Origin: Rubrivivax sp.
GTDB taxonomy: Bacteria > Pseudomonadota > Gammaproteobacteria > Burkholderiales > Burkholderiaceae_C
Direction of reading: 5' to 3'
DNA: 64,000 nucleotides
NCBI GenBank assembly: GCA_016789865.1
Contig: JAEUPC010000078.1
Location: 28,263-92,262 of the forward strand
The position numbers and the translations under genes are program-made. Shown here in pieces: positions 2,076 through 21,930 of this stretch (its first letter is position 1; each line of letters opens with the position of its first letter). Under the pieces are notes generated by a model, which saw only the letters and a list, made by a program, of their open reading frames with translations, was not told where the DNA came from and did no database searches.

Positions 2076-3698
2076 TCAGCGGGGCGTCAATGGCAGCCGC
2101 GCCGCGGGCCGCTCGCGGCCGGCCACGTCGTGGAACTGCAGCACCAATGCGCCGGTGTCGCCCTCGATGCGCAGCACGCCATAGGTGTGCTCGACCTGAC
2201 CGTCGTCGGTGTACAGGCGCTGGGGCTTCAGTGCCGCATCGACCTTTCCGCTGCCGGGGCCGGCGCGCAGCGCGCCGATATTGGCCTCGTGCACGTCGGG
2301 CTCGCCGTCGCCGTCCAGGTCGTAGGCGAAGAGGTTGCTGAAATGCTGGTCGCCGGTGAGGAAGACGACGTTGCGGATGCGCCGCTCGCGGATGTGGGCC
2401 ATCAACTCGTTCAGCTCGCGCCGGTAGCCGTAGGGGTTGCCGTCGTCGACTGCAGGCCACGAGTCGCGGTAGATGCGGCCTTGCGGGTCACGCTCGTTGC
2501 CGCCCTCGATCGACAGCGGCACCGTGCTGACCACGATCTTCCACGTCGCGCTGCTGCGGGCGAGCGCGTCCTTGAACCAGGCCTTTTGTGCCGCGCCGAG
2601 CATCGTCTTCGGCGCTGCATCGCTGTCGACGCGGTAGCGCGGGTCGCGGTGGCTGCGCGTGTCGAGCATGAACACTTCGGCGTGCGCGCCCCAGCGCCAG
2701 CTCCGCCACAGGCGCCGCGCCTCGGGGCTGCCGGAAGGCACGGTGGGAGCGGCGGCCGCGGCCGCAGCGGGCTCGGCCAGCACCGGGATCGGGTTCCACT
2801 CGAACATCGCCTGCCGCCCGGCGGCGTAGAGCGCGGGGCTGAAGAACACCGACTGGCGCCGGCCGCCCACGCGCGGGCGCGCCGGGTCGGACTGGCTGCG
2901 CAGCCTCGCGTCGCGCGCCGCTTCTTCGTCGGTGGGGCCGCGCGTGAGTTCGGGGCCGCCACTGTCGTTGACGAGTTCGTGGTCGTCCCAGGTGGCGATG
3001 ATCGGCGTCGTACGCAGGAAGCGGTCGAAGTGCGCATCGCTGCGGTGGTAGTGCCAGTCGCGCCGGAAGTCGTCGAGACTGCTCACGTAGCCGGCGCCCG
3101 GCTTGGGGATCTGGAACGCGTTGCCCTTGGCGAAGGTCCTGTCGGGCGCCTCGGCGGTGACGGGGCGGTCGGAGTACAGCATGTCGCCGAGTGCGATGAA
3201 GGCATCGGCGCTTTCGCCGCGCATCGGCTCGAAGATCGGCCAGCCGGCGCGGCCGCTCGGGTTGCCGGGCGCCAGCCGGCCGTAGCCCTGGCCGCCGAGA
3301 TCGGCGCCGAAAAGCAGCTTGACGCCGCGCCTGTCCGCCGGCGCCGGCGCCGTGACGAACGACGCACGCGCAGGCAGCGCCGTGCCGTCGCCGCGCACCA
3401 GCCGCCAGTGGTAGCGTGTATCGGCTGCGAGACCGCCGACTTCGGCCTGTGCGGTGAGCGCCCCGGCATCGATGCGCACCGGCAGTCGCGCGCGCACCTG
3501 CTCGAAGTGCGCGTCTTCGGCGACCTCGAAGCGGTGGTCGCCGGGCGCCTCGGCGCGGGCCCAGAGCACCGCGCCGTCGGGCCGTGGGTCGCCGGTGGCG
3601 AGCAACTGCGCGGCCGCAGGGGAGGCGCTGGCCAGCGCGGCCAGGGCCAGCGGGACGAGCCGGGCGGCGAGCTTCATGACGGGTGTCAACTCACGCAT
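2076..3698 (-). CDS. phoD: PhoD-like alkaline phosphatase/phosphodiesterase, exported
   Basis: 540 residues. A signal peptide with a hydrophobic stretch (about residues 9-30, ending SPAAAQ) points to export. A PhoD N-terminal beta domain with a DGAVLWAR motif is followed by the metallophosphatase core: FGADLGG (Asp132), ALGDMLYSD (Asp172, Tyr175), TWDDHELVND (Asp238, Asp239, His240) and LTGDQHFSN (Asp450, His452). The family uses iron and calcium to cleave phosphate mono- and diesters in the periplasm. The ATG at 3698 has a GAGG 8 nt upstream and overlaps the phosphonate monoester hydrolase stop by 8 nt, so the two are translationally coupled. A second ATG at 3677 would start closer to the hydrophobic core. 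With the upstream hydrolase it probably releases phosphate from organophosphorus esters. Confidence 0.88.
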   Translation of the reverse strand: MRELTPVMKLAARLVPLALAALASASPAAAQLLATGDPRPDGAVLWARAEAPGDHRFEVAEDAHFEQVRARLPVRIDAGALTAQAEVGGLAADTRYHWRLVRGDGTALPARASFVTAPAPADRRGVKLLFGADLGGQGYGRLAPGNPSGRAGWPIFEPMRGESADAFIALGDMLYSDRPVTAEAPDRTFAKGNAFQIPKPGAGYVSSLDDFRRDWHYHRSDAHFDRFLRTTPIIATWDDHELVNDSGGPELTRGPTDEEAARDARLRSQSDPARPRVGGRRQSVFFSPALYAAGRQAMFEWNPIPVLAEPAAAAAAAPTVPSGSPEARRLWRSWRWGAHAEVFMLDTRSHRDPRYRVDSDAAPKTMLGAAQKAWFKDALARSSATWKIVVSTVPLSIEGGNERDPQGRIYRDSWPAVDDGNPYGYRRELNELMAHIRERRIRNVVFLTGDQHFSNLFAYDLDGDGEPDVHEANIGALRAGPGSGKVDAALKPQRLYTDDGQVEHTYGVLRIEGDTGALVLQFHDVAGRERPAARLPLTPR

Positions 3699-5223
3699 CG
3701 AATTGCCTCAGCCCCTGCTTGCTGATCGCGTAGCCGGTAAGCGTGCGGTCGGCCTGCGACAGCCGCCAGTCGAGCATGCGGCGCGTGCAATGCAGTGCGG
3801 CTTCGCGGTGCGCCGGGTCATCGGCGACGTTGACGAGCCAGTGCGGGTCGCTGGGCAGGTGGAACATCAGCGGCGGCAGCGCCGCGCAGTGCACATAGGC
3901 AAATCGTTCGTCCAGCTGCACCGCGAGCGAGCAGTCGTCGCGCGGAATGCCCAGCCGCTCGTGCGCCGCGCCGCCGGCGAGATCGCGGAAGTCGTATTCC
4001 CAGTGCGCCTCGCGCCGCCACTGTGAAGGGCCCGGCGATCGGGTGAAGGGCAGCAGCGAGCGGCCGTTGCACTGCCGCGGCACCGGCGCGCCCAGCCACT
4101 GCATGATGGTCGGCAGCACGTCGACGTTCTCGGTGAACGCCTGCACCTGCTTGCCGCGCGTGGCGTCGGCCTCGGGCCGCGGGTCGACCACGATGCACGG
4201 CACGTGGTAGCTCTGCGGGAAGTAGCCGCGCTTGGCCACCAGGTGGTGGTCGCCGAGCTGCTCGCCGTGGTCGGAGGTGAGCACGATGAGCGTGCGCTCC
4301 AGTTGGCCGGTGTCTTGCAGCAGCTGCATCACGCGGCCGACATGGTGGTCCACCTCGGCCAGCAGGCCGAAGTAGGCGGCACGCATGCGCCCCACGTCGG
4401 CCAGGCTCAGGTCGCGCGCCAGGCCCGGCATCCAGTGCATCGCGCTGCTGACCTTCATCGTGTCGAGGATGAGCTTGGTGAGCGGGTGCACCGCGGCCTC
4501 GGCCTCGGCGCTGGCGGCGCGCACCGGCGGCAGCGTGTCCTTGGGGTGCACCCGCTGGTGCCACGGTGCCGAGGGCATGAGCGGCGGATGCGGGCGGAAG
4601 AAGCCCAGGTGCATGAACCAGGGTTTCTTCGCGCGGATGCGCAGGTAGTCGAGCGCACCCTCGGCGCACCACGCGGTGTCGGTGTGCTGCTCGGCGATGG
4701 GGCTGGGCGCGAACCAGGTCGGGTCGTGCTCGCCGGGCGGCGGGCGGAACAGCTGCTCGTAGGTGTCGGGGATGGTGTAGCCCTGCCCCGACAGCCAGGC
4801 CAGGTAGTGCGCGCGCGGCTCTTCGAAATCGCGCACGATGTTCCAGCCGCCGGCGATGGAGTTGGTGGTGAAGCGCGGGTCGTTGGCATGCGCGTGCCGC
4901 GGGTCGGGCACGGTGGTGGTGTAGCCCACCAGCGCGGGCTCGTAGCCCAGTTCGCGCGCGAACATCGGCAGCGTCTTCAGGTGCTGCGCGGTCGGCGCGT
5001 CGTTGGTGATGACGCGGTGGTTCATCACGTACATGCCGGTGGCGATGGAGGCGCGGCTGGGGCCGCAGGGCGAGCCCTGCGCGTAGTGGCGGCGGAAGGT
5101 GACGCCGCGCGCGGCCAGGCGGTCGATGTGGGGCGTGACGGCGTTGGGGTGGCCGACGCAGCGCAGCGCGTCGCCGCGCAGCTGGTCGATGATGAGCAGC
5201 AGGACGTTGGGTTGGTCAGGCAT
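3691..5223 (-). CDS. pehA: Phosphonate monoester hydrolase / phosphodiesterase (sulfatase superfamily)
   Basis: 510 residues with the layout of the Rhizobium/Burkholderia phosphonate monoester hydrolases. Metal-binding Asp13 lies in LLLIIDQ. The formylglycine motif is C-G-P-S-R at 53-57, followed by MNHRVITND and GYTTTVPDPRH. The second metal site is in TSDHGEQLGDHH (Asp318, His319). The conserved C-terminal end is WRLSQADRTLTGY. These segments match the family as I remember it. The enzymes hydrolyse phosphonate monoesters and phosphate diesters, releasing an alcohol and a free phosphonate. No signal peptide is seen, so it is probably cytoplasmic and acts on imported esters. The gene sits between a peptide-type ABC importer and phoD, downstream of the phosphonate importer genes, which supports a role in phosphonate ester use. 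Confidence 0.88.
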   Translation of the reverse strand: MPDQPNVLLLIIDQLRGDALRCVGHPNAVTPHIDRLAARGVTFRRHYAQGSPCGPSRASIATGMYVMNHRVITNDAPTAQHLKTLPMFARELGYEPALVGYTTTVPDPRHAHANDPRFTTNSIAGGWNIVRDFEEPRAHYLAWLSGQGYTIPDTYEQLFRPPPGEHDPTWFAPSPIAEQHTDTAWCAEGALDYLRIRAKKPWFMHLGFFRPHPPLMPSAPWHQRVHPKDTLPPVRAASAEAEAAVHPLTKLILDTMKVSSAMHWMPGLARDLSLADVGRMRAAYFGLLAEVDHHVGRVMQLLQDTGQLERTLIVLTSDHGEQLGDHHLVAKRGYFPQSYHVPCIVVDPRPEADATRGKQVQAFTENVDVLPTIMQWLGAPVPRQCNGRSLLPFTRSPGPSQWRREAHWEYDFRDLAGGAAHERLGIPRDDCSLAVQLDERFAYVHCAALPPLMFHLPSDPHWLVNVADDPAHREAALHCTRRMLDWRLSQADRTLTGYAISKQGLRQFDA

Positions 5224-5256
5224 GGCGGTCGGGCACGGTGGTCAGGCGTTCAGCTC

Positions 5257-5417
5257 AGAGCCTGTGACTTATTCGGGCGTGCCCGAGCAGCGCGCCAGAA
5301 GGCGTCCGATCGAGGCGCAAATGCGAGCCATAGCCCGGGCTATGGCGAGCATTTGCAACGAAGAGCGGGCGTCTTCTGGCGTGATGAGCGGGCATGCGCG
5401 AATAAGTCACAGGCTCT
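5257..5417. repeat. 161-bp imperfect palindrome (MITE-like or RNA hairpin)
   Basis: The outer 19 bp AGAGCCTGTGACTTATTCG at 5257-5275 return exactly inverted at 5399-5417. Both arms then stay alignable across about 80 bp with scattered mismatches, meeting at a perfect 20-bp palindrome at 5327-5346. It fills the gap between the ABC ATPase gene and the phosphonate monoester hydrolase gene, and its right end touches the ATPase stop codon. It codes for nothing recognisable. It may be a non-autonomous mobile element or a long transcribed hairpin. Confidence 0.75.
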
Positions 5418-6570
5418 CAGGCGCGCGTGTCGGCGCGCGCCAGATCGTGCAGACGCAAACAGGCGGCGCGGTGCGAGGGTCCGGTCGCGATCGATGAGAC
5501 CGACCCGCCCGTCACCTCGATCAGCGCCGGAATCTCGCCGGCGCAGGCCGGCACGGCATGCGGGCAGCGCGTGCGGAACACGCAGCCGCTCGGGCGGTCG
5601 ATGCCGCTGGGCGGCTCGCCGGCCAGCGGCTCGAGCTTGGGTCGCACGGTGGGGTCGGGCACCGGCACCGCAGCCAGCAGCGCGCGCGTGTACGGGTGCG
5701 CGGGGTGCGCGAAGACCTCGGCCGTGGGGCCGACCTCGACCAGCCGGCCGAGGTACATCACCGCCACGCGGTCGGCCACCATGCGCACGACACCGAGGTT
5801 GTGCGTGATGAAGAGCATCGTCAGGCCCAGCCGCCTGCGCAACTCGGCCAGCATGCGCAGGATCTGCGCCTGCACCGAGACATCGAGCGACGACACGGCC
5901 TCGTCGGCGACGATGAAGCGCGGCTGCAACGCCAGCGCCCGCGCGATGCCCACGCGCTGGCGCTGCCCGCCGGAAAGCGCGTGCGGGAAGCGCCGCGCCA
6001 ACGAGGCATCGAGCCCGACCAGCGCCAGCACTTCGGCCACGCGCGCCGCACGTTCGGCGCGTGTGCCGACCTTGTGCACCGCCAGCCCCTCGGCGACGAT
6101 CTCGCCCACCGACTGCCGCGGGTCGAGCGAGGCGAACGGGTCCTGGAACACGATCTGCATCTGCCGGCGCAGCGCGCGCAGCTCGGGCGGCGGCAGGCCG
6201 ATGAGGCTTTGGCCGTCGAAGCGGATGTCGCCGGCGGTCGGCTCGATCAGGCGCAGCAGCGTGCGGCCCAGCGTCGTCTTGCCCGAGCCCGACTCGCCCA
6301 CCAGCGCCAGCACTTCGCCTTCGCGCACGCTGAGGTCGACACCGTCCACGGCCTTCAGCGTGCGCGCGCGCCACCAGCGGCGGCCGAGCGGAAACCAGGT
6401 GGAGACACGCTCGGCGACGAGCAGGTCGCGGGCGGGGCCGGTTGGAACGGAAGGCACCGCCGCTGAATCACCCGCGGACCCGCGGGCCTGGCGATCGGGG
6501 GCGCCGCTCGTCATGCCGATCGTCGCGCCGCTCGTCATGCCGGTCGTCGTGCCGGTCGTCCTGCCGCTGG

Positions 6571-6574
<4 letters not shown>
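5417..6574 (-). CDS. Peptide/nickel-type ABC transporter ATPase, DppF/OppF-like
   Basis: 385 residues from the ATG at 6574, which overlaps the upstream ATPase stop as ATGA. After a Thr/Ser/Gly-rich head made by a 12-nt tandem repeat, the ATPase shows Walker [11 protein letters not shown]-loop QDPFASLD, signature LSGGQRQR, Walker B with ADEAVSSLD and H-loop THN. The C-terminal oligopeptide-ATPase tail carries the Cys-rich [14 protein letters not shown] segment. It powers import through the DppB/DppC-like permeases encoded upstream. Later ATGs at 6538 and 6514, one in each of two further repeat units, are possible alternative starts. Its place between the phosphonate importer genes and the phosphonate ester hydrolase suggests an organophosphonate ester or phosphonopeptide as the substrate (inference). 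Confidence 0.9.

Positions 6575-6598
<24 letters not shown>
6503..6598. repeat. 12-nt tandem repeat, 8 units, over the junction of two ABC ATPase genes
   Basis: Eight units related to GCCGCTCGTCAT (plus strand), starting at 6503. They encode the last residues of the upstream ATPase and the first about 24 residues of the downstream ATPase in another frame. The unit length is a multiple of three, so copy-number changes keep both frames open. Units 1, 3 and 6 end in CAT and so supply three possible in-frame ATG starts (6514, 6538, 6574). Confidence 0.85.
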
Positions 6599-7648
<1,050 letters not shown>

Positions 7649-7656
<8 letters not shown>

Positions 7657-8578
7657 CTACTTTCACGTCCAGCACGTCGCGCAGCCAGTCGCCCAGCATC
7701 TGCACGATGAAGGTGATGGTGACGATCACCAGCGCCGGCGCCACCGCCACCCACCAGGCGAAGATGAGGTGGTCGCGGCCGTCGCCGACCATGCGGCCGA
7801 GCGACGCGGTGGGCGGCTGCACGCCGATGCCGAGGAACGACAGCGAAGACTCCAGCAGCAGGATCGACGGGAAGTTCAGCGTCAGCAGCACGATCAGCGG
7901 GCTGGCGATGTTGGGCAGCACATGCTTCACGGCGATCCACGTCGTGCTGGCGCCCAATGCCCGGCTGGCTTCGATGAACGGCATCTCGCGCACCTGCAGC
8001 ACCTGGCCGCGCACGATGCGGGCGTAGGTCTCCCAGCGCGCCAGGCCGACGAGCAGGATCAGCACCGGAATGTCGGAACCGAAGGCCGCGATGCCCACCA
8101 GCACCAGCAACAAGAAGGGCACGGTGATGAAGACATCCACCACCATCATCACCACCCGGTCGACCCAGCCGCCGACCAGCCCGCTGACCAGGCCGGCCAG
8201 CGTGCCCACCACCGCGCTGACGATGAGACCCAGCAACGCAATGCCCACGCTGACGCGGATGCCGTGGATGCAGCGCGAGAGCAGGTCGCGGCCGAGCTGG
8301 TCGGTGCCCAGCCAATGCCCGGTCTCGTAGCCTTCCATGCCGAGCGGCGCCTTGAGCTTGAGCAGGATCTGCGTCTGCACCGGGTCGTGCGGCGCCACCC
8401 ACGGCGCGAACAGCGCGGCCAGCGCCAGCACCACACCGATGCAGATGCAGCCCTTGATGACGCCGGGCATGCGCCGCCAGGCCAGGCGGCGGCGCAGCGT
8501 GAAGCCGGCATCGGCCTCATCGGTGCCGACCGCTGTTGCGACGGCGGTCGCGGCGGTGGCTGCGCTGGCGTCGTTCAT
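7649..8578 (-). CDS. Peptide/nickel-type ABC transporter permease, DppC-like
   Basis: 309 residues. An N-terminal cytoplasmic tail and one membrane segment ([15 protein letters not shown]) are followed by the periplasmic stretch [16 protein letters not shown], a hallmark of DppC/OppC permeases. Five further membrane segments contain the coupling (EAA) loop [21 protein letters not shown]. It forms the translocation path with the DppB-like subunit. Its start is 7 nt after the DppB-like stop and its end overlaps the DppD-like start by 8 nt. Confidence 0.92.
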
Positions 8579-8585
8579 GCCGCGC

Positions 8586-9506: not shown

Positions 9507-9552
9507 CGCCCTGGGGCGCGCGGGCTGCGTCTTCTTTCAGCGATCCGGCAAT

Positions 9553-11130
9553 TCAGCGCTTCAGGCTCACCTGGCCGGCGCGGAAGGTCAGCTCGTAGGG
9601 GCGCTGCGCGATCGGCACCTTCCACTCGATGTCTTCGCGCATTGCATAACCTTCATACGGCTGATACAGCACGATCCAGCCGCTCTCGGCATCGGCGATT
9701 TCCTGCAGCTTGCGGTAGGCGGCCACGCGCTCCTTGGTGTCGGTGGTGAAGCGCGCCTTCTCGTAGGTGGCCTTCCACTCCGGGTGCGCGGGCTTCCACA
9801 AGCCCCGCTGCGTGACCCAGCTCTTCTCCGACCAATGTGTGTCGAAGGCGCCCATCGGGTCGGGGTAGTACATCGGGTTGGACCATGGGCGCATGTGCAC
9901 GTTCGTGTGGTCGCCGCTGCCGAAGAAGGCTTCGCTCTGCTTGAGCTTGACGTTGATGCCGGCCTTCTTCCACATGTCGGCCACGGCCTGCGCACCCAGG
10001 TCGCCGTACAGGTAGTACTCGGGGAAGAAGACGATCTCGATCGGCTCGCCCTTGTAGTTGGCCTTCTTCAAGAGGGCCTTGGCGCCTTCGAGGTCGTACT
10101 TGTAGTAGTTCAGGTCGGGCATGAACAGCGGCTCGCCGTACTCGGCGAACTGGTGTGCCTTGGGCGCCTTGCCCTTGCCGGCCCACAGCGCCTTCACCAG
10201 CAGCTCGCGGTCGATGGCGAGATTCAGCGCGCGGCGCAGGTCGGGGTTGGCCATCTGCGGGTGGCTCATGTTGATCACCCAGACGTGAAAGAGCGGCAGC
10301 GCTGCGCCGACGATGCGATAACCCTTCACGCGGCGCACCGCCGCCTCCTGGTCGGGCGGCACGTTGGTGATGAAGTCGACCTCCTTGTTCACCAGCGCCG
10401 TGATGCGCGCGGCCACCTCCGGGATGCGCAGGTAGGTAAGCTTGTCGAACGGCGCGCGCTCGCCCCAGAACTTGTCGTGCCGCACCAGCACGGCCTGCTC
10501 GTTGGGCTTGAGCAGCTCCACCATGTAGGGCCCGCTGCCCACGGGCTTCAGCGCCGAGGCATCGAGGCCCACCCGCTCCACGTACTCCTTGCTCGTGATG
10601 CCGGCGTTGCGCGCCGACAGCAGCGTCTCCATCAGCGGGTCGGGCCGGTGCGTGTGGATGCGCACCGTGAGCCGGTCGACCGCGTCCACCGACTTGAAGT
10701 TGTAGAAGAAGCGGCCGTTGCTGGCCCGGAAACGCGGATCCTTGGGCGCGAACACGCGCTCCAGCGAATACTTCACGTCCTCCGCATCCATCGTGGTGCC
10801 GTCGTGCATCACCACGCCGTCGCGCAGCTTCAGCTCCATCGTCGTCGGCGCCACCATCTTCCAGCTTGTCGCCAGGCCGGGCACGAACTTCAGCGGGCTG
10901 GCGTAGTTGTCGCGCTCGATCAGCGTGTCGAACAGGTTGTGCAGGAACTGCGCCTCGTTGTTGCCGGTGGCCTCGTTCACGTCGAGCGAACGCGCGTGCG
11001 AGGCGACGCCGATGCGCAGCTCGCGCGGCTGCGCGAACGCCGTGCCGGCCGCCACCAGGCCCAGCAGCGCTGCGCCGACCCAGCCACCCAGGCGGCCGAC
11101 CGCCTGCTTCCACCGACCCGATGTATGCAT
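9553..11130 (-). CDS. Extracellular solute-binding protein family 5 (DppA/OppA-like)
   Basis: 525 residues from the ATG at 11130, chosen because AGGAGG lies 7 nt upstream and a clear signal peptide follows (hydrophobic segment about 15-32, cleavage near AFAQ). The family 5 layout is complete: an early EPRSLD-like segment (SHARSLDVNEATGN), SLERVFAPKDPRF, the GSGPYMVELLKPN motif and a RRALNLAIDRELLV segment. It binds the substrate in the periplasm for the DppBCDF-like importer. The specificity cannot be read from sequence. Its neighbours, a phosphonate importer upstream and a phosphonate ester hydrolase downstream, suggest organophosphorus compounds (inference). It starts 55 nt downstream of the second phnE. 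Confidence 0.9.
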   Translation of the reverse strand: MHTSGRWKQAVGRLGGWVGAALLGLVAAGTAFAQPRELRIGVASHARSLDVNEATGNNEAQFLHNLFDTLIERDNYASPLKFVPGLATSWKMVAPTTMELKLRDGVVMHDGTTMDAEDVKYSLERVFAPKDPRFRASNGRFFYNFKSVDAVDRLTVRIHTHRPDPLMETLLSARNAGITSKEYVERVGLDASALKPVGSGPYMVELLKPNEQAVLVRHDKFWGERAPFDKLTYLRIPEVAARITALVNKEVDFITNVPPDQEAAVRRVKGYRIVGAALPLFHVWVINMSHPQMANPDLRRALNLAIDRELLVKALWAGKGKAPKAHQFAEYGEPLFMPDLNYYKYDLEGAKALLKKANYKGEPIEIVFFPEYYLYGDLGAQAVADMWKKAGINVKLKQSEAFFGSGDHTNVHMRPWSNPMYYPDPMGAFDTHWSEKSWVTQRGLWKPAHPEWKATYEKARFTTDTKERVAAYRKLQEIADAESGWIVLYQPYEGYAMREDIEWKVPIAQRPYELTFRAGQVSLKR

Positions 11131-11185
11131 CACAACCTCCTGCTGGTTCTGCTGACGAGGCCGCGGCCGGCCGCGAGCGCCTCTC

Positions 11186-12037
11186 TCACGCCACCGCGCG
11201 CGCGATGCGCCCGCGCACCCAGGCCGAGAACAGCTCGGCGACGATGACGATGCCGACGATGGTGAGGATGATCGCGGCGACCTGGCGGCTTTCCACGCGC
11301 TGCACGCTCTCGCGCAGGTAGTGGCCCATGCCGCCGGCACCGAAGAAGCCCACCACCGTGCTGGCGCGGAACACCACGTCCCAGGTGTAGATGGCGATGC
11401 CGGCCCAGGCCACGCGCACCTGCGGCAGCACCGCGTAGATGAAGGTCTGCAGGTGCCCGGCGCCGGTGGCGCGGATGGCTTCCACCGGCCCTTTGCGGAC
11501 GGCCTCGATGGCCTCGGCCATCAGCTTGCCGCCGAAGCCGATGCAGAACAGCGTCATCGCCAGCGTGCCCGGCAGCATGCCGAAGCCGACGATGGCCACC
11601 AGCACGATGGTCCAGATCATCTCGTGCACCGAGCGGCAGCTCATCACGACGAGCCGGCACACCGGGTACAGGAAGCGGCGGCTGGGCGTCATGTTGAACG
11701 ACGCGAACCACGCCAGCGGAATGGCGATGAGCAACCCCACCACGGTGGCCACGTAGCTCATCTGGAAGGTGTCGATGATCGCGTCGACGAAGTCGGGCTT
11801 GACGACATGCGACCATTCGGGCGGCCAGTAGCGGTTGGCCAGCACGCTGCCGATGCGCTGGAAGAGGCCGGGCAGGCGCTCGGCGTCGATGCGCAGCACG
11901 TCCATCGACCACCACACGAAGGCCAGCGCACCCAGCAGCGCGCCGTACTTGTACAGGCTGTGGGGGAAGCGGAAGCGCTTCCACTCGGGCAGCGGCTTGG
12001 CGGCGGCGGCGGCGGATGTGGCAGAGGTGCTGCTCAT
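11186..12037 (-). CDS. phnE: Phosphonate ABC transporter permease PhnE (second copy)
   Basis: 283 residues. After a polar head there are about six membrane segments. The phosphonate permease signature reads CRSVHEMIWTIVLV, and the coupling loop is AIEAVRKGPVEAIRATGAG, ending in STVVGFFGAGGMG. These are typical of PhnE inner-membrane proteins. It follows another phnE with a 1-nt gap, so the importer probably uses a heterodimer of two permeases, as in several proteobacterial phnCDEE sets. Confidence 0.93.
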   Translation of the reverse strand: MSSTSATSAAAAAKPLPEWKRFRFPHSLYKYGALLGALAFVWWSMDVLRIDAERLPGLFQRIGSVLANRYWPPEWSHVVKPDFVDAIIDTFQMSYVATVVGLLIAIPLAWFASFNMTPSRRFLYPVCRLVVMSCRSVHEMIWTIVLVAIVGFGMLPGTLAMTLFCIGFGGKLMAEAIEAVRKGPVEAIRATGAGHLQTFIYAVLPQVRVAWAGIAIYTWDVVFRASTVVGFFGAGGMGHYLRESVQRVESRQVAAIILTIVGIVIVAELFSAWVRGRIARAVA

Positions 12038-12038
12038 G

Positions 12039-12908
12039 TCAGATCACCTTCTTTCGTGCCCATGCGGAGAACAGCTCACCGAAGATGATGAGCAGCAGGA
12101 TCACGAAGATCACCGTGGCGATGCCGCCGTAGTTGTAGCTGGCCATCTGCCGGTGCAGCGCGAGCCCCAGGCCGCCGGCGCCCACCAGCCCCATGATGGT
12201 GGAGCGGCGAATGTTCACGTCCCACTCGAAGATGCAGTTGCCGATGATGGTGGGCAGCACCTGCGGCACGATGCCGAACATCAGCACCTGGAATCGGTTG
12301 GCGCCCACTGCGCGCATCGCCTCCACCGGGCCCTGGTTGACGTCTTCGATCGCCTCGGCCACCGTCTTGCTGATGAAGCCGATCGAGCGCACCGCCATCG
12401 CCAGCACGCCGGCCAGCGCGCCCAGGCCCACGGCGGCGACGAACACCAGCCCCCACACCACCTCGTGCACCGATCGCGAAACGGTCATCAGCGTGCGGCC
12501 CAGCAGATAGGTGCCGCGGCCCAGCGGCGAGATGTTGGCCGCACCGAGCCAGGCCACGGGAATGGCCATCAGCATGCCCAGCAGCGTGGCGAGCGTGGCC
12601 ATCAGCACCGTTTCCAGCGCCGGCTCCCACAGCGACAGCAGGATCGAGGCGTCGAAGTCGATGAAGCGCAGCGCAGCGCTCCAGATGCCTTGCGCGCTGA
12701 TGCGGCTCCAGTCGGTGTCGCCGACGACGATGGCCTCCACGCTCCACAGCACCAGCGCGGCGATGGCGGCGTAGCGCGCATAGCGCCAGGTGCGTGCGCG
12801 CCGGCGGCTGGCGGCCAGTTCGGCAATGCGCGCGGCGTGGTGCGGCGCCGGCATGCCGGGCATCGCGGCCGGGCCGCGTGGCGTGGTCGCCTCGGCAGCA
12901 GCGGCCAT
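12039..12908 (-). CDS. phnE: Phosphonate ABC transporter permease PhnE (first copy)
   Basis: 289 residues from the ATG at 12908, 2 nt after the phnC stop; a longer in-frame reading would run back into phnC. It carries SRSVHEVVWGLVFV and AIEDVNQGPVEAMRAVGANRF and ends in STIMGLVGAGGLG. The membrane layout is the same as in the downstream phnE, but identity is limited, so the duplication is old. It forms the inner-membrane channel of the phosphonate importer. Confidence 0.93.
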   Translation of the reverse strand: MAAAAEATTPRGPAAMPGMPAPHHAARIAELAASRRRARTWRYARYAAIAALVLWSVEAIVVGDTDWSRISAQGIWSAALRFIDFDASILLSLWEPALETVLMATLATLLGMLMAIPVAWLGAANISPLGRGTYLLGRTLMTVSRSVHEVVWGLVFVAAVGLGALAGVLAMAVRSIGFISKTVAEAIEDVNQGPVEAMRAVGANRFQVLMFGIVPQVLPTIIGNCIFEWDVNIRRSTIMGLVGAGGLGLALHRQMASYNYGGIATVIFVILLLIIFGELFSAWARKKVI

Positions 12909-12910
12909 GG

Positions 12911-13663
12911 CTACAGCACCTCCATCGCGTAGATGTCGGCCAGCGCGTGCTTGTCCACGCTGCCCGGCGGGCCGTCGAACTTCTTGATGCCGTCCTGCAG
13001 GCCGATGACGCGGTCGCAGAACTCCAGCGCCAGGTCCACGTCGTGGATGTTGCACAGCACCGGCACCTGGAACTCGCGCGCGATGCCGCGGATCATGCCC
13101 ATCACCTCGCGCGAGATCTTCGGGTCCAGCGCCGAGGTCGGCTCGTCCACCAGCAGCAGCTTGGGCTCCTGGATCAGCGCGCGCGCGATGCCCACGCGCT
13201 GGCGCTGCCCGCCACTGAGCGCATCGGCGCGCTTGTCCAGGTGGTCGATGAGGCCCACGCGGTCCAGCAGCGCCACCGCCTTGGCGATGTCTTCCTTGCC
13301 GTACAGGCGAAACAGGCTCGTCAGGCTGCCCATGTAGCCCAGCCGCCCGGTGAGCACGTTGTCCATCACCGACAGCCGGTCGATGAGGTTGAACTCCTGG
13401 AAGATCATGCCGATGTTGCGCCGCTGCCGGCGCATTGCGCCTTCGTCGAGCTTCAGCAGGTCCTGCCCTTCGAACAGCACCTGCCCGCCGGTGGGCTCCA
13501 CCAGGCGGTTGACGCAGCGGATCAGCGTGCTCTTGCCGGCGCCGCTGGGGCCGATGATGGCCACGAACTCCTCGGCGCCGACATCGAAGCTGATGCCCTT
13601 GAGGATCTGCTTGCCCGCGGTGTAGCTGACTTGCAGATCCTTGACTTGCAGGACCGCGGCCAT
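12911..13663 (-). CDS. phnC: Phosphonate ABC transporter ATPase PhnC
   Basis: 250 residues from the ATG at 13663, with GGAGA 8 nt upstream. Walker A GPSGAGKST, Q-loop FQEFNLIDRLSVMDNVL (the PhnC-type sequence), signature LSGGQRQR, Walker B LLLVDEPTSALDP and H-loop IHDVDLA are all present. The length is normal for PhnC. It sits between phnD and the two phnE genes. Confidence 0.95.
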   Translation of the reverse strand: MAAVLQVKDLQVSYTAGKQILKGISFDVGAEEFVAIIGPSGAGKSTLIRCVNRLVEPTGGQVLFEGQDLLKLDEGAMRRQRRNIGMIFQEFNLIDRLSVMDNVLTGRLGYMGSLTSLFRLYGKEDIAKAVALLDRVGLIDHLDKRADALSGGQRQRVGIARALIQEPKLLLVDEPTSALDPKISREVMGMIRGIAREFQVPVLCNIHDVDLALEFCDRVIGLQDGIKKFDGPPGSVDKHALADIYAMEVL

Positions 13664-13748
13664 GCAGTTGTCTCCTGTTCTTGCGGCGCGCTGTCCGCGC
13701 GCCGGCGTCACCGCACCTGGCGCGAAGGCCGGTGCGGCGGGTCCCGCG

Positions 13749-14633
13749 TCACTTCTTCTGCACGTCACGGATGACGTTGTAGTCGGCGTCCTTCATGGCC
13801 ACCACCTTCTCCGACTTCACGTTGGCCAGGTACTTGCGGCCGTCTTCGTTCTGGTCCACCAGCAAGAAGGTGTCGGCGATCTTCTTCTTCAGGTCATCGC
13901 ACAGCGTGTTGCGGTAGACGAACGGGTCCTGCGGCAGCAGCGGCGAGTACCACAGGTAGTTGAAATCGTCCTGCTTCACCTTGCCTGCGTTCACCGTCTC
14001 CATGAAGCGGTGCGTGGCGACGAAGGCCGCATCCACCTTGCCCTCGGCCACGGCAATGGCACCCAGATCGTGGCCGCCTGAGTAGACGACCTTGGAGAAG
14101 TAGTCCTTCAGCGGCGGCAGGCCGGCCTGCTTGGGGAACACGTGCTCGGGCACCAGCCCGCCGCTGGTGCTGGCCGGGTCCACCAGCGCCACCACGCTGC
14201 CCTTGAGCGACGCGTAGTCGGTGAACTTGCTGCCCTTCTTGGTGATGAGCACGGCCTTGTAGCCGGGGCCGGGTTCCTGGATGCCGTTCTTCAGCCGCGA
14301 GTAGGTGCCGAACACCTCGACCGAGGGGTCCTTGCTGCGTGCGATGACGTAGCTCTCGGGGCCGAGCACGGCCACGTCGACCCACTTGCCCAGCAGCGCC
14401 TCGACCACCGAGCTGTACGAAGTGGGCATGTAGAACTCGATCTTCTTGCCGGTGTTCTTGGCCAGCTGGTCGAGGATGGGCTTGTAGTAGCCCAGCTCGC
14501 GCAGGCTGTCCTGCGTAGGCACCAGCGAGAACTTCAGCACGCGCGGGTTCTCGCACTGTTGCGCGAAGGCGGGCAGCGGCAGCGCAGCGGCCGCGGCCAT
14601 GGCCGCAGCGATGAACGAACGACGGATGTACAT
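13749..14633 (-). CDS. phnD: Phosphonate-binding periplasmic protein PhnD
   Basis: 294 residues from the ATG at 14633, with GGAG shortly upstream. The signal peptide ends near PAFAQQ (about 24). The mature protein has the PhnD layout: VPTQDSLRELGYYKPILDQLAKNTG, the VDVAVLGPESYV segment and DPASTSGGLVPEHVF. It captures phosphonates in the periplasm and delivers them to the PhnE permeases. It heads the phnDCEE transporter genes, 49 nt after the alcohol dehydrogenase stop. Confidence 0.94.
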   Translation of the reverse strand: MYIRRSFIAAAMAAAAALPLPAFAQQCENPRVLKFSLVPTQDSLRELGYYKPILDQLAKNTGKKIEFYMPTSYSSVVEALLGKWVDVAVLGPESYVIARSKDPSVEVFGTYSRLKNGIQEPGPGYKAVLITKKGSKFTDYASLKGSVVALVDPASTSGGLVPEHVFPKQAGLPPLKDYFSKVVYSGGHDLGAIAVAEGKVDAAFVATHRFMETVNAGKVKQDDFNYLWYSPLLPQDPFVYRNTLCDDLKKKIADTFLLVDQNEDGRKYLANVKSEKVVAMKDADYNVIRDVQKK

Positions 14634-14682
14634 GGCAGTCTCCTCGGGGGTGTTTGCGGGTGGGGCGGAAGTCGATCGGCAG

Positions 14683-15780
14683 TCAGGGCACGATGGCGGC
14701 GCGAAGCACCTTGCGGTCCTCGGCATCTTTCATCGCCTGGCCCACTTCGTTCAGTCCGTACTTGCCATCGACCAGGTCCTTGAACGGGAAGCGCTGGCGA
14801 TTCACGGTGACGAAGTCCAGCGCCTCGATCAGGTGCCGCGGGTGATAGTTGTGCACCCCGCGCAGCGTGATGAGCTTGCGCAGGATCTGGTTGACGTCGA
14901 TGTTGACGAAGCTGTCGGGGTTGACCACCCCGCCCAGCACGTAGTGGCCGCCGGTGCGCAGCATCTGGATACCGGCGGGGATGACGCTGGGGTAGCCGCA
15001 AACCTCGATCACCGCGTCGGCCCCTTCGGGCCTGCACAGCGCCTTGACCTTCTTGACCATCTCGGCTTCGCTCGTCGCGGCGGGGTCGATGACCTCGTCG
15101 CAGCCGAAGCGCTTGCCCAGTTCGCGCCGAGCGGCCACGGTGTCGATGCCGATCACCAGCCGCGCACCGCGCGCCTTGGCGATGGCGCTGGCGTACAGCC
15201 CCAGCAGCCCCAGGCCCTGCACCACCACCGCGTCACCCATGCGGATCTCGGCCTGCTCGGTGACGCAGATCACCGTGGCCACACCGCAATTCACCGGGGT
15301 CGCTTCTTCGTCGCTCAACACGTCGGGCAGCCGCAGGATCCACGAGCGCGGCAAGATGTAGCAGTACTGGCCGAATCCGCCGTGATGGTGCGGCTCGGTC
15401 GTGACAGCCATGTGACCGTACTTGTCCACGCCCGGGCTCTTCTGCGGCAGATCGAGCACCTCGGTGTAGTAGTTATCGCCGGGGATGAAGTACTCGCTCC
15501 AGGTGATGCGGTCACCTTCGCGCAGCGCATCACCGCGCATGTCCTTCGTGACCCCGGCACCCAGCGCGACGATGGTGCCGATGATCTCGTGGCCCAGCAC
15601 GCCGGGCGTGGGGTTCGGGCGATGGCCGAGGTAGCTGTGGATGTCCGAGCGGCAGATGGTGCACATGCGCACCTTGACCAGCACTTCGCCCGGCCGCGGC
15701 TCGCGAATGGGGAACAGGCGCAGCTCGAAGGGCGCGTTCGGCTGGTCGTACACGGCCACCTGGCCGGCTTCAGGAAACAT
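14683..15780 (-). CDS. Zinc-type alcohol dehydrogenase associated with phosphonate use
   Basis: 365 residues of the medium-chain dehydrogenase family. Catalytic zinc ligands are visible: Cys43 with Asp46 in CRSDIH, and His64-Glu65 in LGHEIIG. The NAD(P) site reads GLGLLG. The lobe that normally holds a second, structural zinc contains no cysteine cluster; the region after GDRITWSEYF has only Tyr, Asp and Lys. The family resembles the putative phosphonate-catabolism alcohol dehydrogenases found beside phn genes. It could oxidise the alcohol released from a phosphonate ester, or interconvert a hydroxyphosphonate and its carbonyl form. The substrate is unproven. It lies between phnA and phnD on the same strand. 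Confidence 0.85.
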   Translation of the reverse strand: MFPEAGQVAVYDQPNAPFELRLFPIREPRPGEVLVKVRMCTICRSDIHSYLGHRPNPTPGVLGHEIIGTIVALGAGVTKDMRGDALREGDRITWSEYFIPGDNYYTEVLDLPQKSPGVDKYGHMAVTTEPHHHGGFGQYCYILPRSWILRLPDVLSDEEATPVNCGVATVICVTEQAEIRMGDAVVVQGLGLLGLYASAIAKARGARLVIGIDTVAARRELGKRFGCDEVIDPAATSEAEMVKKVKALCRPEGADAVIEVCGYPSVIPAGIQMLRTGGHYVLGGVVNPDSFVNIDVNQILRKLITLRGVHNYHPRHLIEALDFVTVNRQRFPFKDLVDGKYGLNEVGQAMKDAEDRKVLRAAIVP

Positions 15781-15826
15781 GAAGACCTCCGTCGAACGCA
15801 GACGCGGCCCAGCGGCCGCCGCGCAA

Positions 15827-15891
15827 CCGGCTCTGCCGGGCCGCTGGCGGTGCCCCCTGGGGGGAGGCGGCCGAAGGCCGCTTCGGGGGGG
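15827..15891 (-). repeat. Intercistronic hairpin repeat, copy 1 (after phnA stop)
   Basis: In the sense of transcription it starts 6 nt after the phnA stop codon: a C-run, GAAGCGGCC, then TTC, GGCCGC (stem-loop), CTCCCCCCAGGGGG (palindrome), GCCAGCGGCCCGGC. The same module, in the same orientation to the preceding gene, occurs at 20590-20655 and 41165-41230. Confidence 0.85.
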
Positions 15892-15897
15892 TCGAAC

Positions 15898-17157
15898 TCA
15901 TGCCGTGCCGTTGATCGCGTAGTCGAAGATCTGGTACGACTTGAGCGGGGCGCCCGCTGCCTTCACCTTGTAGGCATCGTTCAGCGGCCGACTCAGGATG
16001 AACGGCACCTTGGCCTCGCTCACGCCACCGTGCGTGCGCAGGCGGTGGCCCTTCAGACCGGCGAGGTCGTGGTTCTTCGCCGAGGCGCCGATGCACACGT
16101 CTTCGCGCGACACCACCGCCACGTCGGCCTCGCGGTCGGGCGGCATGTCGAACATGCGGCACGCGGTGGCCTTGTCCAGCGCCAGCTCGATGCCGTCGAT
16201 GCCCGAGATGTGGTCGATGATCTGGCGCGCCGTCACCTTGCCGCGCGACCACACGCGCACGAACCCGCCCAGCGCCCCGTGGTGCGCGACGAAGGCGTCG
16301 GTGATCGGGCAGATGACGATCGTTTCGTCCTTGCCGAACTTCGCGTCGAGGATGTCCTGCAGCCAGATCACGTTGGGCTCGCCCGCGGCATTGCTCTTGT
16401 CGCTCATGCCGTGGTCGGCGGTCAGTGCCAGCGTGATGTCCTCGGCCGCCAGGCGCCCGAACACATCGTCCAGCCGCTCGTAGAAGCGCAGCGCGTCGGC
16501 CTCGTCGGGCGACCACTTGTGCTGCACCCAGTCGGTGAGGCTCAGGAACAGCAGGTCGGGGCGGCGCTCCTTCAGCAGCTTCAGCCCCGCTTCCAGCACG
16601 AACAGCGACAGCTCCATCGAGTACATGCCGGGCTTGTCCATGCCCAGCCACGGCAGCACGTTCTCGATGCCGTTCTCGGCCAGCGTGCACTTCTCGACGA
16701 ACTCGGTGGAGAACGACACATGGCCCTGGCTCACGTCCAGGCCCTTGGCCAGTTGCTTGCGCAGCTTGTCCTTGGCGGTGATCGAGACCACCTTGGCGCC
16801 GGCGGCGGCGAAGCGCGCGATGATGGTGTCGCCGCGCAGCAGCTCGGGGCCGGTCATGACCACCGGCTGCCAGGTGGCGGTGTCGAGGTAGAAGTTGCCG
16901 GAGATGCCGTGCCGTGCGGTCGGCGTGCCGGTGATCAGCGACATGTTGTTCGGGCAGGTGAACGAGGGCATCGAGCCGTCGGCCACGCCGGCGAAGCCCT
17001 GGCTCACGAAGCGGCGGAAGTTCGGCAGCTTGCCGTCGGCCAGGAAGCGCTGCAGGTAGCGCGGGTCGCCGCCGTCGATGCAGACGACGACGACGGGGCG
17101 CAGCGGCCAGCGGTAGGTGGTGCCGTTGGCTTGAACGGTGGGCTTGGTGGGGCTCAT
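15898..17157 (-). CDS. phnA: Phosphonoacetate hydrolase PhnA
   Basis: 419 residues from the ATG at 17157 (a longer reading would need TTG at 17196). It belongs to the alkaline phosphatase superfamily. VVVVCIDGG gives metal ligand Asp28, PSFTCPNNMSLITG gives the Thr67 nucleophile, and TADHGMSDK carries the second metal site. The family hydrolyses phosphonoacetate to acetate and phosphate with two zinc ions. The PhnA-specific NNMSLITGTPTARHGISGN segment is present. It lies directly downstream of phnR. It would complete the route 2-aminoethylphosphonate to phosphonoacetaldehyde to phosphonoacetate begun by PhnW at 23737-24855. Confidence 0.93.
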   Translation of the reverse strand: MSPTKPTVQANGTTYRWPLRPVVVVCIDGGDPRYLQRFLADGKLPNFRRFVSQGFAGVADGSMPSFTCPNNMSLITGTPTARHGISGNFYLDTATWQPVVMTGPELLRGDTIIARFAAAGAKVVSITAKDKLRKQLAKGLDVSQGHVSFSTEFVEKCTLAENGIENVLPWLGMDKPGMYSMELSLFVLEAGLKLLKERRPDLLFLSLTDWVQHKWSPDEADALRFYERLDDVFGRLAAEDITLALTADHGMSDKSNAAGEPNVIWLQDILDAKFGKDETIVICPITDAFVAHHGALGGFVRVWSRGKVTARQIIDHISGIDGIELALDKATACRMFDMPPDREADVAVVSREDVCIGASAKNHDLAGLKGHRLRTHGGVSEAKVPFILSRPLNDAYKVKAAGAPLKSYQIFDYAINGTA

Positions 17158-17291
17158 GGGTCGGGAAGGGCTTTCGCGGTGCAGGGAGCGGTTCAAGAAG
17201 CTCGTGGGTTCGTGAAGGGGTGCCAGGGCCTGGGCGCGGTAGGCTTGCGGTATCGGCGCGATGCAGGCGCAGTGGGCGCAGCAGCGGCGCG

Positions 17292-18011
17292 TCAGCGCCC
17301 ACCGCCCGGCGTGAGCGCGGCGTGCAGCCGCGCGCGGCTGACCAGCACGTGTTCGGTGAGCAACTGCTCGGCGCGCGCTTCGTCGCGCGCGGCCACCGCC
17401 TCGACGATGGCCTCGTGCTCCTGCGTCGACAGCGGAATGTTGTCGACACTGCGCGAGATGGTGGCGCGGCGGTACAGGTCGAGCTGGTTGACGACGCCGC
17501 GGTAGTGCGCCAGCAGCGCGTTGTTGCGGGCGGCGCGTGCCAGCAGGTCATGGAAGTCGACGTTGAGCACGAAGTAGTCCTCGGCACGCCGACCCTTCTG
17601 CACCTGGTGCATGCGGCGCACGATGGCGCGCAGCTGCTCCACCTCGTCGGGCGCGACGCGGCGCGCCGCCAGCCGGCCGATGAGGCCTTCGAGCGCGGCA
17701 CGCACCTCGTAGAACTCGTTGGCCTCTTCCAGCGACACCTGGCGCACGAAGACGCCGCGGTTCTTCTCCACGCGCACCAGGCCCGCCTGGCTGAGGGCGC
17801 GAAAGGCCTCGCGCACCGGCCCGCGCGAGACGCCCAGCGCGGTAGCCACATCCACTTCGTTGAGCTTGCTGCCGGCGGCGATTTCGCCGCTGATGATGCG
17901 GCGCTCCAGTTCCTGCTGCGCCAGAGTCGCCAGCGAGTGCTCGCGCAACAGGCCGATGGCATCGGCGGCCATCGGCGGGCGCGCAGTGCGGTCGGCGGGT
18001 GTTGCGGGCAT
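17292..18011 (-). CDS. phnR: GntR-family (FCD) regulator of phosphonate use
   Basis: 239 residues. The N-terminal winged helix-turn-helix of the GntR type is at about 25-95 (LNEVDVATALGVSRGPVREAFRALSQAGLV). The C-terminal FCD ligand domain follows, with the metal-type residues of NVDFHDLLARAARN and a later QEHEAIVEAV. This is the size and layout of the Burkholderiales phosphonate-utilisation regulators. It is the first gene of the minus-strand phosphonate operon. Its own promoter overlaps a palindromic operator at 18055-18080, so autoregulation is likely. The inducer is probably a phosphonate or a breakdown product (inference). Confidence 0.88.
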   Translation of the reverse strand: MPATPADRTARPPMAADAIGLLREHSLATLAQQELERRIISGEIAAGSKLNEVDVATALGVSRGPVREAFRALSQAGLVRVEKNRGVFVRQVSLEEANEFYEVRAALEGLIGRLAARRVAPDEVEQLRAIVRRMHQVQKGRRAEDYFVLNVDFHDLLARAARNNALLAHYRGVVNQLDLYRRATISRSVDNIPLSTQEHEAIVEAVAARDEARAEQLLTEHVLVSRARLHAALTPGGGR

Positions 18012-20588: not shown

Positions 20589-20589
20589 G

Positions 20590-20655: not shown

Positions 20656-20700
20656 ACCCGCGGCAACCGCTGGCCTGGGTGCCACCCATCCCCCGCGACC

Positions 20701-21930
<1,230 letters not shown>

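What the first reader, a model, noticed from the sequence alone, without database searches (positions are those of the whole stretch)
2076..18011. Candidate phosphonate-ester scavenging operon: PhnA + PhnDCEE + Opp-type importer + phosphonate monoester hydrolase + PhoD
The run from phnR to phoD is all on one strand with overlaps or short gaps, except for the palindrome at 5257-5417. A complete peptide-type importer is enclosed between phosphonate importer genes and a formylglycine-type phosphonate monoester hydrolase. Known families give hydrolysis of phosphonate esters and of phosphonoacetate. The inference is that the Opp-type system imports phosphonate esters or phosphonopeptides, the hydrolase frees the phosphonate, and PhnA (or PhnW) finishes it. 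I do not know of this combination as a described system.
Basis: partly seen in the sequence, partly recalled or inferred. Interest (0 to 1): 0.78.

Follow-up and report, generated by a model that had tools for sequence, protein, structure and literature searches.

The report
Operon for importing and degrading phosphonate esters
A conserved set of bacterial genes appears to import phosphonates that are still attached to another molecule, cut them free inside the cell and then break their carbon-phosphorus bond, which suggests a natural job for a known family of hydrolases.

Summary
In detail: fourteen co-oriented genes run from phnR (18011) to phoD (2076), and they are a conserved unit. Five other genomes carry phnA, an alcohol dehydrogenase (ADH), the whole peptide-type importer, the monoester hydrolase (PMH) and phoD together; phnDCEE moves or was not seen. 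Two further relatives break the pattern.

The importer is not an ordinary peptide importer. Its binding protein is nearest to AccA, the agrocinopine (sugar phosphodiester) binder, and keeps AccA's four phosphate contacts but not the sugar contacts compared. The type enzyme RlPMH also sits beside an AccA-like importer, and PMHs 63-65% identical sit beside C-P lyase genes.

A palindrome ahead of phnR recurs in the same genome upstream of PhnY, a Na/Pi carrier and a hydroxyacid-dehydrogenase-like gene; in one relative all of these lie together.

Best reading: PhnR-controlled import of an intact phosphonate monoester, cytoplasmic cleavage by PMH, then ADH, aldehyde dehydrogenase and PhnA to acetate and phosphate. 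The ADH, and a 97%-complete genome without PhnW, point to 2-hydroxyethylphosphonate esters, but no substrate is shown. Ordinary phosphodiesters remain the main rival.

The parts
18055..18080 (-). Operator-like palindrome just upstream of phnR, overlapping a sigma-70-like promoter match (18069-18040)
   Evidence: Near-copies upstream of phnR in L044, L046, L048, L049; promoter match is 1 found, 0.7 expected
17292..18011 (-). phnR, GntR/FCD regulator
   Evidence: TIGR03338 249.7 bits, under the 271.5 cut-off; PF07729 and PF00392
15898..17196 (-). phnA, phosphonoacetate hydrolase
   Evidence: TIGR02335 494.1 bits, over the 407.55 cut-off
14683..15780 (-). Zn-type alcohol dehydrogenase, proposed 2-hydroxyethylphosphonate dehydrogenase
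   Evidence: TIGR03366 (phosphonate catabolism associated ADH) 286.5 bits, under the 328.1 cut-off; kept in 7 of 9 close loci
13749..14726 (-). phnD, phosphonate binding protein
   Evidence: PF12974; TIGR01098 211.8 over cut-off, TIGR03431 under cut-off
12911..13768 (-). phnC, ATPase
   Evidence: TIGR02315 309.3 over 266.1
12039..13055 (-). phnE1, permease (true start probably later)
   Evidence: TIGR01097 242.8 over 216.7
11186..12037 (-). phnE2, permease
   Evidence: TIGR01097 237.9 over 216.7
9553..11130 (-). AccA-like family-5 binding protein, proposed phosphonate-ester binder; contacts N57, Y372, Y373, S417
   Evidence: PF00496; nearest solved relatives AccA; residues
8586..9506 (-). oppB-type permease
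   Evidence: PF00528; Opp/Nik-type NCBIfam models, all under cut-off
7649..8578 (-). oppC-type permease
   Evidence: PF00528
6571..7656 (-). oppD-type ATPase
   Evidence: PF00005 and PF08352
5417..6688 (-). oppF-type ATPase (longest ORF; true start probably downstream)
   Evidence: PF00005 and PF08352; possible starts
3691..5223 (-). Phosphonate monoester hydrolase (PMH, PehA-like), C53-G-P-S-R formylglycine-type motif
   Evidence: 2w8s E 8.3e-142 and 2vqr E 1.1e-138; motif
2076..3698 (-). phoD-type phosphatase with an apparent signal peptide (by eye)
   Evidence: PF09423 183.1 bits and PF16655; translation
19240..19265 (+). Second operator-like box, upstream of the gene at 18194-19219
18194..19219 (-). 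2-hydroxyacid-dehydrogenase-like gene, probably part of the regulon
   Evidence: PF02826; 76% copy beside phnR in L046; start chosen
19539..24855 (+). Divergent 2-aminoethylphosphonate importer (phnS2, phnT2, phnU2) and phnW; may share the box at 19240-19265 (inferred from position only)
   Evidence: over cut-offs for TIGR03261, TIGR03265, TIGR03262 and TIGR02326

Best explanation
A PhnR-regulated unit for using phosphonate monoesters. (1) The exported PhoD may trim larger phosphonate-bearing molecules outside (inferred, weak). (2) The AccA-like binding protein holds the charged P group of an intact monoester through N57, Y372, Y373 and S417, and OppBCDF imports it whole (the contacts are shown by conservation, the transport is inferred). 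(3) PMH, which has no export signal that I can see, cuts the P-O-C ester in the cytoplasm (family activity known from the literature, natural substrate inferred). (4) The ADH oxidises released 2-hydroxyethylphosphonate to phosphonoacetaldehyde (inferred); an aldehyde dehydrogenase, encoded in the operon in several relatives and as PhnY elsewhere in this genome, makes phosphonoacetate; PhnA yields acetate and phosphate (PhnA and PhnY by family match). (5) PhnDCEE takes up free phosphonate where present, and a Na/Pi carrier with a copy of the same box may handle surplus phosphate (inferred). I put about 0.7 on phosphonate monoester import and cleavage, and about 0.45 on 2-hydroxyethylphosphonate as the phosphonate released.
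For: Linkage: phnA+ADH in 7 of 9 loci with 53-93% identical binding proteins, PMH with phoD in 5 of 9 (three of the other four contigs end before that place), against 0 of 70 loci at about 25-30% identity. Gene order differs between them. Binding protein: AccA is the nearest solved kind, E about 1e-71 to 1e-76, next kind 2.4e-34; the four phosphate contacts named in PMC4526662 are kept in 9 of 9 of the clade and not in the five ordinary relatives tested. PMH: nearest to solved phosphonate monoester hydrolases; RlPMH itself lies beside an importer whose binding protein has the same contacts; PMHs 63-65% identical lie beside phnJ and phnM in three of five g20 genomes. Path: canonical PhnY fills the slot just before the binding protein in L046; the genomes of L047-L050, which have another aldehyde dehydrogenase in the operon, show no PhnY over cut-off, while G000 and the genomes of L044, L045 and L046 do. 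No PhnW over cut-off in the 97%-complete G403/G169. Regulon: four distinct operator-like sites in the window's genome, all beside phosphonate-pathway or Na/Pi genes, reversed control none; contiguous in L046 with L212.
Against: No substrate was tested. PMHs also cut phosphodiesters (PMC5649143 passage), and other AccA-like importers sit with metallophosphoesterase, HAD-hydrolase or glycerophosphodiesterase genes. None of 16 PMH regions phylum-wide has such an importer. L045 has other genes upstream of the binding protein and L051 departs after oppC. The ADH, PhnR, PhnD and PMH are under their NCBIfam equivalog cut-offs. The operon aldehyde dehydrogenase resembles betaine-aldehyde dehydrogenases more than PhnY, so ADH and ALDH might serve the alcohol half instead. 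G405 and G407 do have PhnW. One-mismatch operator matches also occur by chance (four in G407, control one). The formylglycine-generating enzyme family gave only a partial match in G000 and none at E 1e-20 in G407.
Confidence: 0.66

Rival explanations
1. The Opp-type importer and PMH serve ordinary phosphodiesters (sugar or glycerol phosphodiesters). They share an operon with phosphonate genes as a general organic-phosphorus unit.
For: AccA binds a sugar phosphodiester (PMC4526662); related importers sit with metallophosphoesterase, HAD-hydrolase or glycerophosphodiesterase genes; PMHs accept phosphodiesters (PMC5649143 passage); PhoD is in the unit.
Against: The unit keeps phnA, the ADH and often an aldehyde dehydrogenase, which phosphodiester use does not need; close PMHs in g20 sit with phnCDDEE and, in three of five, C-P lyase genes; the sugar-side residues of AccA that were compared are changed.
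Confidence: 0.22
2. PMH releases phosphonoacetate (or another phosphonate) directly, and ADH plus aldehyde dehydrogenase oxidise the alcohol half of the ester, for instance a choline- or ethanolamine-like alcohol.
For: The operon aldehyde dehydrogenase of L032 and L033 scores best with betaine-aldehyde dehydrogenase models; PhnA needs only phosphonoacetate.
Against: L046 has a canonical PhnY in the slot before the binding protein; PhnY is distributed in a complementary way to the operon enzyme in eight of the ten genomes searched; the ADH is nearest a phosphonate-associated ADH family, though under its cut-off.
Confidence: 0.2
3. An ordinary oligopeptide importer that happens to lie inside a phosphonate operon, or that carries phosphonopeptides.
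For: Permeases and ATPases match Opp/Dpp/Nik-type models.
Against: The binding protein is far nearer AccA than OppA or DppA, the phosphate contacts are kept, no peptidase is among the 14 genes, and the linkage is conserved.
Confidence: 0.07

Closest known systems
acc operon of Agrobacterium: AccA importer and AccF phosphodiesterase, agrocinopine uptake
   Same: Family-5 binding protein with Asn, Tyr, Tyr and Ser on the phosphate, Opp-type permeases and ATPases, whole ester imported and cut inside (PMC4526662 passages; AccF from the abstract in the listing).
   Different: About 35% identity; seven sugar-side or gate residues changed; PMH in place of a glycerophosphodiesterase-type gene; tied to phosphonate degradation.
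Phosphonate monoester hydrolases RlPMH (2vqr) and 2w8s, PehA
   Same: Sequence family over the full length, C-x-P-x-R motif; RlPMH too lies beside an AccA-like importer.
   Different: 45% identity to the RlPMH locus; here with phnA, ADH and phoD under PhnR.
PhnW-PhnY-PhnA path for 2-aminoethylphosphonate
   Same: PhnY and PhnA steps from phosphonoacetaldehyde on (PMC10590968 passage).
   Different: Entry by an ADH and an ester hydrolase is proposed in place of PhnW; the genome also has a PhnW path next door.
Use of phosphonate esters of dissolved polysaccharides by marine Sulfitobacter (PMC5649143, passages only)
   Same: The authors postulate that PhoD-like enzymes and a PMH (PEH) free the phosphonates, 2-hydroxyethylphosphonate among them.
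   Different: There the C-P bond is cut by C-P lyase, and no ester importer is named in the passages that I saw.

Membership tests
AccA (agrocinopine) binding proteins | Nearest solved relatives are AccA | tested here: met
   Six of the seven nearest distinct PDB sequences are named AccA or agrocinopine binder, the seventh has a generic name; next kind at E 2.4e-34
AccA (agrocinopine) binding proteins | Phosphate contacts Asn54, Tyr375, Tyr376, Ser419 | tested here: met
   N57, Y372, Y373, S417; 9 of 9 rows of the clade
AccA (agrocinopine) binding proteins | Sugar-side and gate residues Tyr145, Trp178, Asn284, Met372, Thr430, Glu434, Trp423 | tested here: not met
   F141, R174, L280, F369, A428, H432, Y421: works like AccA on the P group, not filed as an agrocinopine binder
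Phosphonate monoester hydrolase (PehA) | Full-length match to solved PMHs | tested here: met
   Residues 4-506, E 8.3e-142
Phosphonate monoester hydrolase (PehA) | C-x-P-x-R formylglycine-type motif | tested here: met
   C53-G-P-S-R; C-G-P-x-R in 16 of 16 PMHs examined
Phosphonate monoester hydrolase (PehA) | NF045661 equivalog cut-off | tested here: not met
   598.9 against 900 bits
Phosphonate monoester hydrolase (PehA) | Activity on phosphonate monoesters | not testable with these tools
   Needs an assay
PhnA phosphonoacetate hydrolase | TIGR02335 cut-off | tested here: met
   494.1 against 407.55 bits
Phosphonate importer PhnCDE | PhnC, PhnD and PhnE equivalog cut-offs | tested here: inconclusive
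   PhnC and both PhnE pass; PhnD 214.3 against 261.1, passing only the wider TIGR01098
PhnR regulator TIGR03338 | Equivalog cut-off | tested here: not met
   249.7 against 271.5 bits
Phosphonate-associated ADH TIGR03366 | Model cut-off | tested here: not met
   286.5 against 328.1 bits
2-Hydroxyethylphosphonate dehydrogenase (proposed) | Oxidises 2-hydroxyethylphosphonate | not testable with these tools
   Inferred from gene context only
C-P lyase pathway | phnJ in the genome | tested here: not met
   PhnJ in 1 of 10 genomes (G406), not in G000, which is 77% complete

The most novel reading that the evidence does not exclude
A complete route, without C-P lyase, for esters of 2-hydroxyethylphosphonate such as those carried by polysaccharides: a phosphonate-ester class of AccA-like importer, an intracellular PMH with its natural substrate, a first 2-hydroxyethylphosphonate dehydrogenase, then phosphonoacetaldehyde oxidation and PhnA, under one PhnR operator that also governs a phosphate carrier. 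It would turn 2-hydroxyethylphosphonate to acetate and phosphate where C-P lyase releases ethylene.
Probability: 0.38. Interest if true: 0.78.

Novelty: new variant of a known kind. Interest (0 to 1): 0.64.

Why it matters
[quoted passage not shown] A dedicated uptake route for the esterified form was not in the passages or listings that I saw. Here an importer, a hydrolase and a downstream path are tied together by conserved linkage and, in part, by a shared operator. The same kind of importer lies beside RlPMH, so the unit also suggests a natural role for that hydrolase family, whose physiological substrate is to my knowledge (recalled) unsettled. A few purified proteins would test it.

Tried and rejected
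In-frame TGA in PMHs: the genome search flagged '1 TGA' in several g20 PMHs; the alignments that I could see (its output was cut) end at the natural end of the gene, one running past the stop there, so recoding was dropped. Structure: AlphaFold2 of the binding protein gave mean pLDDT 52, too poor to search with; not used. Pho box (consensus recalled): 1 match in the window, 2.27 expected; dropped. Genes past phoD as part of the unit: the 457-aa ORF at 595-1968 has no Pfam match and found no relative in the fetched loci other than its own copy; the 457-aa ORF after phoD in the L044 genome (L179) is a beta-lactamase-family protein. A general PMH-importer link across the phylum: 0 of 16 regions. 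Terminator-like sites: 5 found, 5.8 expected, none on the minus strand. AccA's Glu504, named in PMC4526662, falls on a tryptophan by my numbering, and Glu510 lies beyond the printed alignment; both were left out of the comparison.

Literature: nine searches of the held library listed no paper that by title or abstract start describes this combination or a 2-hydroxyethylphosphonate dehydrogenase. I saw passages of six papers (PMC5649143, PMC4526662, PMC12366243, PMC10590968, PMC10574752, PMC9381506) and no whole text. Most subscription papers are not held, so absence from print is not shown.
Full report
What is there. Fourteen genes lie on the minus strand from phnR (18011) to phoD (2076): phnR, phnA, ADH, phnD, phnC, phnE1, phnE2, family-5 binding protein, oppB, oppC, oppD, oppF, PMH, phoD. 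Gaps are short or negative except at the palindrome. The window is part of a 4.6-Mb assembly in 247 contigs, 76.9% complete, so absences in it prove little.

The palindrome. The element at 5254-5420 is a strong inverted repeat beginning at the oppF stop. It has three partial copies elsewhere in the genome at 71-74% identity; the other match listed is its own opposite strand. The four relatives with the same order here (L044, L046, L048, L050) have 19, 59, 66 and 70 nt between the aligned ends of oppF and PMH, too little for it. It is best read as an inserted dispersed repeat, not as part of the system. A TCA on either side could be a target duplication, but one case cannot show that.

Is the unit conserved? 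One scan of genome contigs with an alignment of three binding proteins found 258 relatives and kept the best 80, 79 distinct loci. Nine have 53-93% identity (L044-L052); the other 70 have about 25-30%. Of the nine, seven carry phnA with the ADH (L044, L046, L047, L048, L049, L050, L052); L051 has no upstream sequence and L045 has other genes there, among them distant phnC, phnD and phnE relatives (27-37%). PMH with phoD is present in five (L044, L046, L048, L050, L052), all with oppB, oppC, oppD and oppF. Three contigs end before the PMH place (L045, L047, L049), and L051 departs after oppC, an enoyl-CoA hydratase gene following. In the 70 distant loci no PMH, phnA or phoD relative was found at E 1e-10 in what was held, at most 10 kb on each side. 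L048 and L050 are the same contigs as those of G169 and G005, found in a 300-genome sample of the order, and are not counted twice. Order differs: phnDCEE precedes the binding protein in the window, L044 and L046, follows PMH in L048, precedes phnA in L047, and was not seen in L050 or in the held parts of L049 and L052; L052, an alphaproteobacterial assembly, has phoD and PMH ahead of the binding protein. A set of genes that stays together while its order is shuffled points to shared function. Record titles suggest lake samples; I checked no sample data.

What the importer is. Six of the seven nearest distinct solved sequences are named AccA or agrocinopine binder (E 7.4e-76 to 7e-71); the seventh, within that range, has a generic name; the next is at 2.4e-34. 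PMC4526662 (passages) says that Asn54, Ser419, Tyr375 and Tyr376 contact the phosphate, and names further residues around the pyranose. By the alignment the four are N57, S417, Y372 and Y373 here, while Tyr145, Trp178, Asn284, Met372, Thr430, Glu434 and the gate residue Trp423 are F141, R174, L280, F369, A428, H432 and Y421. In the 31-row tree the four contacts are present in all 9 rows of the window clade and in 12 of the other 22. L016 has the last three and a gap at the first; L053, L056, L061, L093 and L117 (the distant group), L143 and L012 lack the tyrosines and the serine; L041 and L011 could not be read. The window clade is one side of a branch with support 100/100; L013-L016 lie next to it (fork 95/92), with the long-branch row L011 among them. 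L013, L015 and L016 sit with annotated metallophosphoesterase and HAD-hydrolase genes; L014 has no annotation. So the importer is of a kind that handles P-O-C esters, with a pocket changed on the other side.

What the hydrolase is. PMH is nearest the solved phosphonate monoester hydrolases (2w8s E 8.3e-142, 2vqr E 1.1e-138). All 16 PMHs checked have C-G-P-x-R. RlPMH of Rhizobium johnstonii 3841 is directly followed by a binding protein, two ATPases and two permeases, and that binding protein has the four contacts; so have those beside the PMHs of Pseudoroseomonas (L141) and, with a PhnF-named regulator, Roseibium (L142). Of seven plasmid loci examined out of 42 records these three have such an importer and four do not. 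In the order sample 12 of 399 genomes have a PMH at E 1e-120, own included, with 13 matches besides the window's; I fetched 12 of these 13 regions. Four have the AccA-like importer (G005, G169, one of three in G240, and G325), five, all of genus g20, have phnC-phnD-phnD-phnE-phnE, and three have neither. In three of the five g20 regions phnJ and phnM lie within the fetched stretch (L036-L038). In the phylum sample 16 other genomes match at E 1e-110 and none of the 16 regions has the importer; two regions are cut short by contig ends. PMHs are therefore used in several settings, and my claim is for these clades only.

The downstream path. PhnA passes its cut-off. In L047-L050 and L052 an aldehyde dehydrogenase follows the ADH; the ones tested resemble betaine-aldehyde dehydrogenase models more than PhnY. 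In L046 the slot just before the binding protein holds a canonical PhnY (854.4 bits against 635.65). PhnY over cut-off is present in G000 (contig C62) and in the genomes of L044, L045, L046 and L052, and not in those of L047, L048, L049, L050 and L051. So the four betaproteobacterial genomes with the operon enzyme lack PhnY and the four with PhnY lack the operon enzyme as far as their loci show; L052's genome has both and L051's showed neither. In the L044 contig PhnY lies 3.8 kb past phoD beside a Na/Pi carrier. PhnW over cut-off is in 5 of 10 genomes: G000 and those of L045, L046, L050 and L052. It is not in G403, by contig number and length the same assembly as the 97%-complete G169, nor in the genomes of L044, L047, L049 and L051, whose completeness is not told. 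An ADH ahead of phosphonoacetaldehyde oxidation in a genome without PhnW suggests 2-hydroxyethylphosphonate as the entry compound. This is inference. PhnX and the Pbf enzymes, which also make or use phosphonoacetaldehyde, were not searched for, and the ADH is under its family cut-off.

Regulation. TTTGCATTTTGTTGACAATCTGCAAA (18080-18055, minus strand) and near-copies stand just upstream of phnR in the window, L044, L046, L048 and L049. A scan with ATTGTNNACAATNTNCA, one mismatch allowed, gave four distinct places in the window's genome: before phnR, before the hydroxyacid-dehydrogenase-like gene (start 19219), before PhnY and before the Na/Pi carrier on C62; the reversed control gave none there. 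One-mismatch matches also occur by chance (four in G407, control one), and the extra sites in G402, G403, G404 and G407 were not examined. In L046 with L212 the hydroxyacid-dehydrogenase-like gene, the Na/Pi carrier and the start of the 2-aminoethylphosphonate importer follow phnR on one contig, with sites before phnR and before the Na/Pi carrier. L050 and L052 showed no such site of note, so control may differ there. Inside the operon no second site was found, and the one promoter-like match lies before phnR, against 0.7 expected by chance.

How sure. That the unit is real and conserved: high. That PhnR controls it with PhnY: likely, from sequence only. That it imports a P-O-C ester: fairly high. 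That the ester is a phosphonate rather than a phosphate: about 0.7. That the phosphonate is 2-hydroxyethylphosphonate: about 0.45. That PMH and PhoD free phosphonates from polysaccharides was already proposed in PMC5649143 (passages); the importer, the link to PhnA and the regulon were not in any passage I saw.

Noticed in passing
window 5254-5420: Near-perfect 160-nt palindrome at the oppF stop, MITE-like, with three partial copies elsewhere in the genome.
   Followed up: partly
window 18194-19219: 2-hydroxyacid-dehydrogenase-like gene (PF02826, the Pfam family of the racemase PbfF in PMC12366243, passage) with its own operator-like box; 76% copy beside phnR in L046. Its reaction is open.
   Followed up: partly
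L036, L037, L038: PMH 63-65% identical to the window's lies next to phnC-phnD-phnD-phnE-phnE and C-P lyase genes (phnJ, phnM) in three g20 genomes.
   Followed up: partly
L140 8995-16207: The type enzyme RlPMH of Rhizobium johnstonii 3841 is directly followed by an AccA-like importer.
   Followed up: yes
L180 4876-10031 (G000 contig C62): PhnY, an amidohydrolase and a Na/Pi carrier with PhoU domains, with operator-like boxes before PhnY and before the carrier.
   Followed up: partly
L179 4952-7854: A class-III aminotransferase gene overlaps the start of PhnY in a genome without PhnW over cut-off; it could be another way into phosphonoacetaldehyde.
   Followed up: no
L013, L015, L016: AccA-like importers with metallophosphoesterase and HAD-hydrolase genes on plasmids: a related, differently equipped organophosphate importer.
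   Followed up: partly
L052 3652-6797: A TRAP-type transporter (DctP, DctM) lies between the aldehyde dehydrogenase and phoD in the alphaproteobacterial version.
   Followed up: no
L181 6469-8796 (reaches into the window start): A second sulfatase-family protein (PF00884) on the same strand beyond the 457-aa ORF at 595-1968; not part of the unit as far as seen.
   Followed up: no
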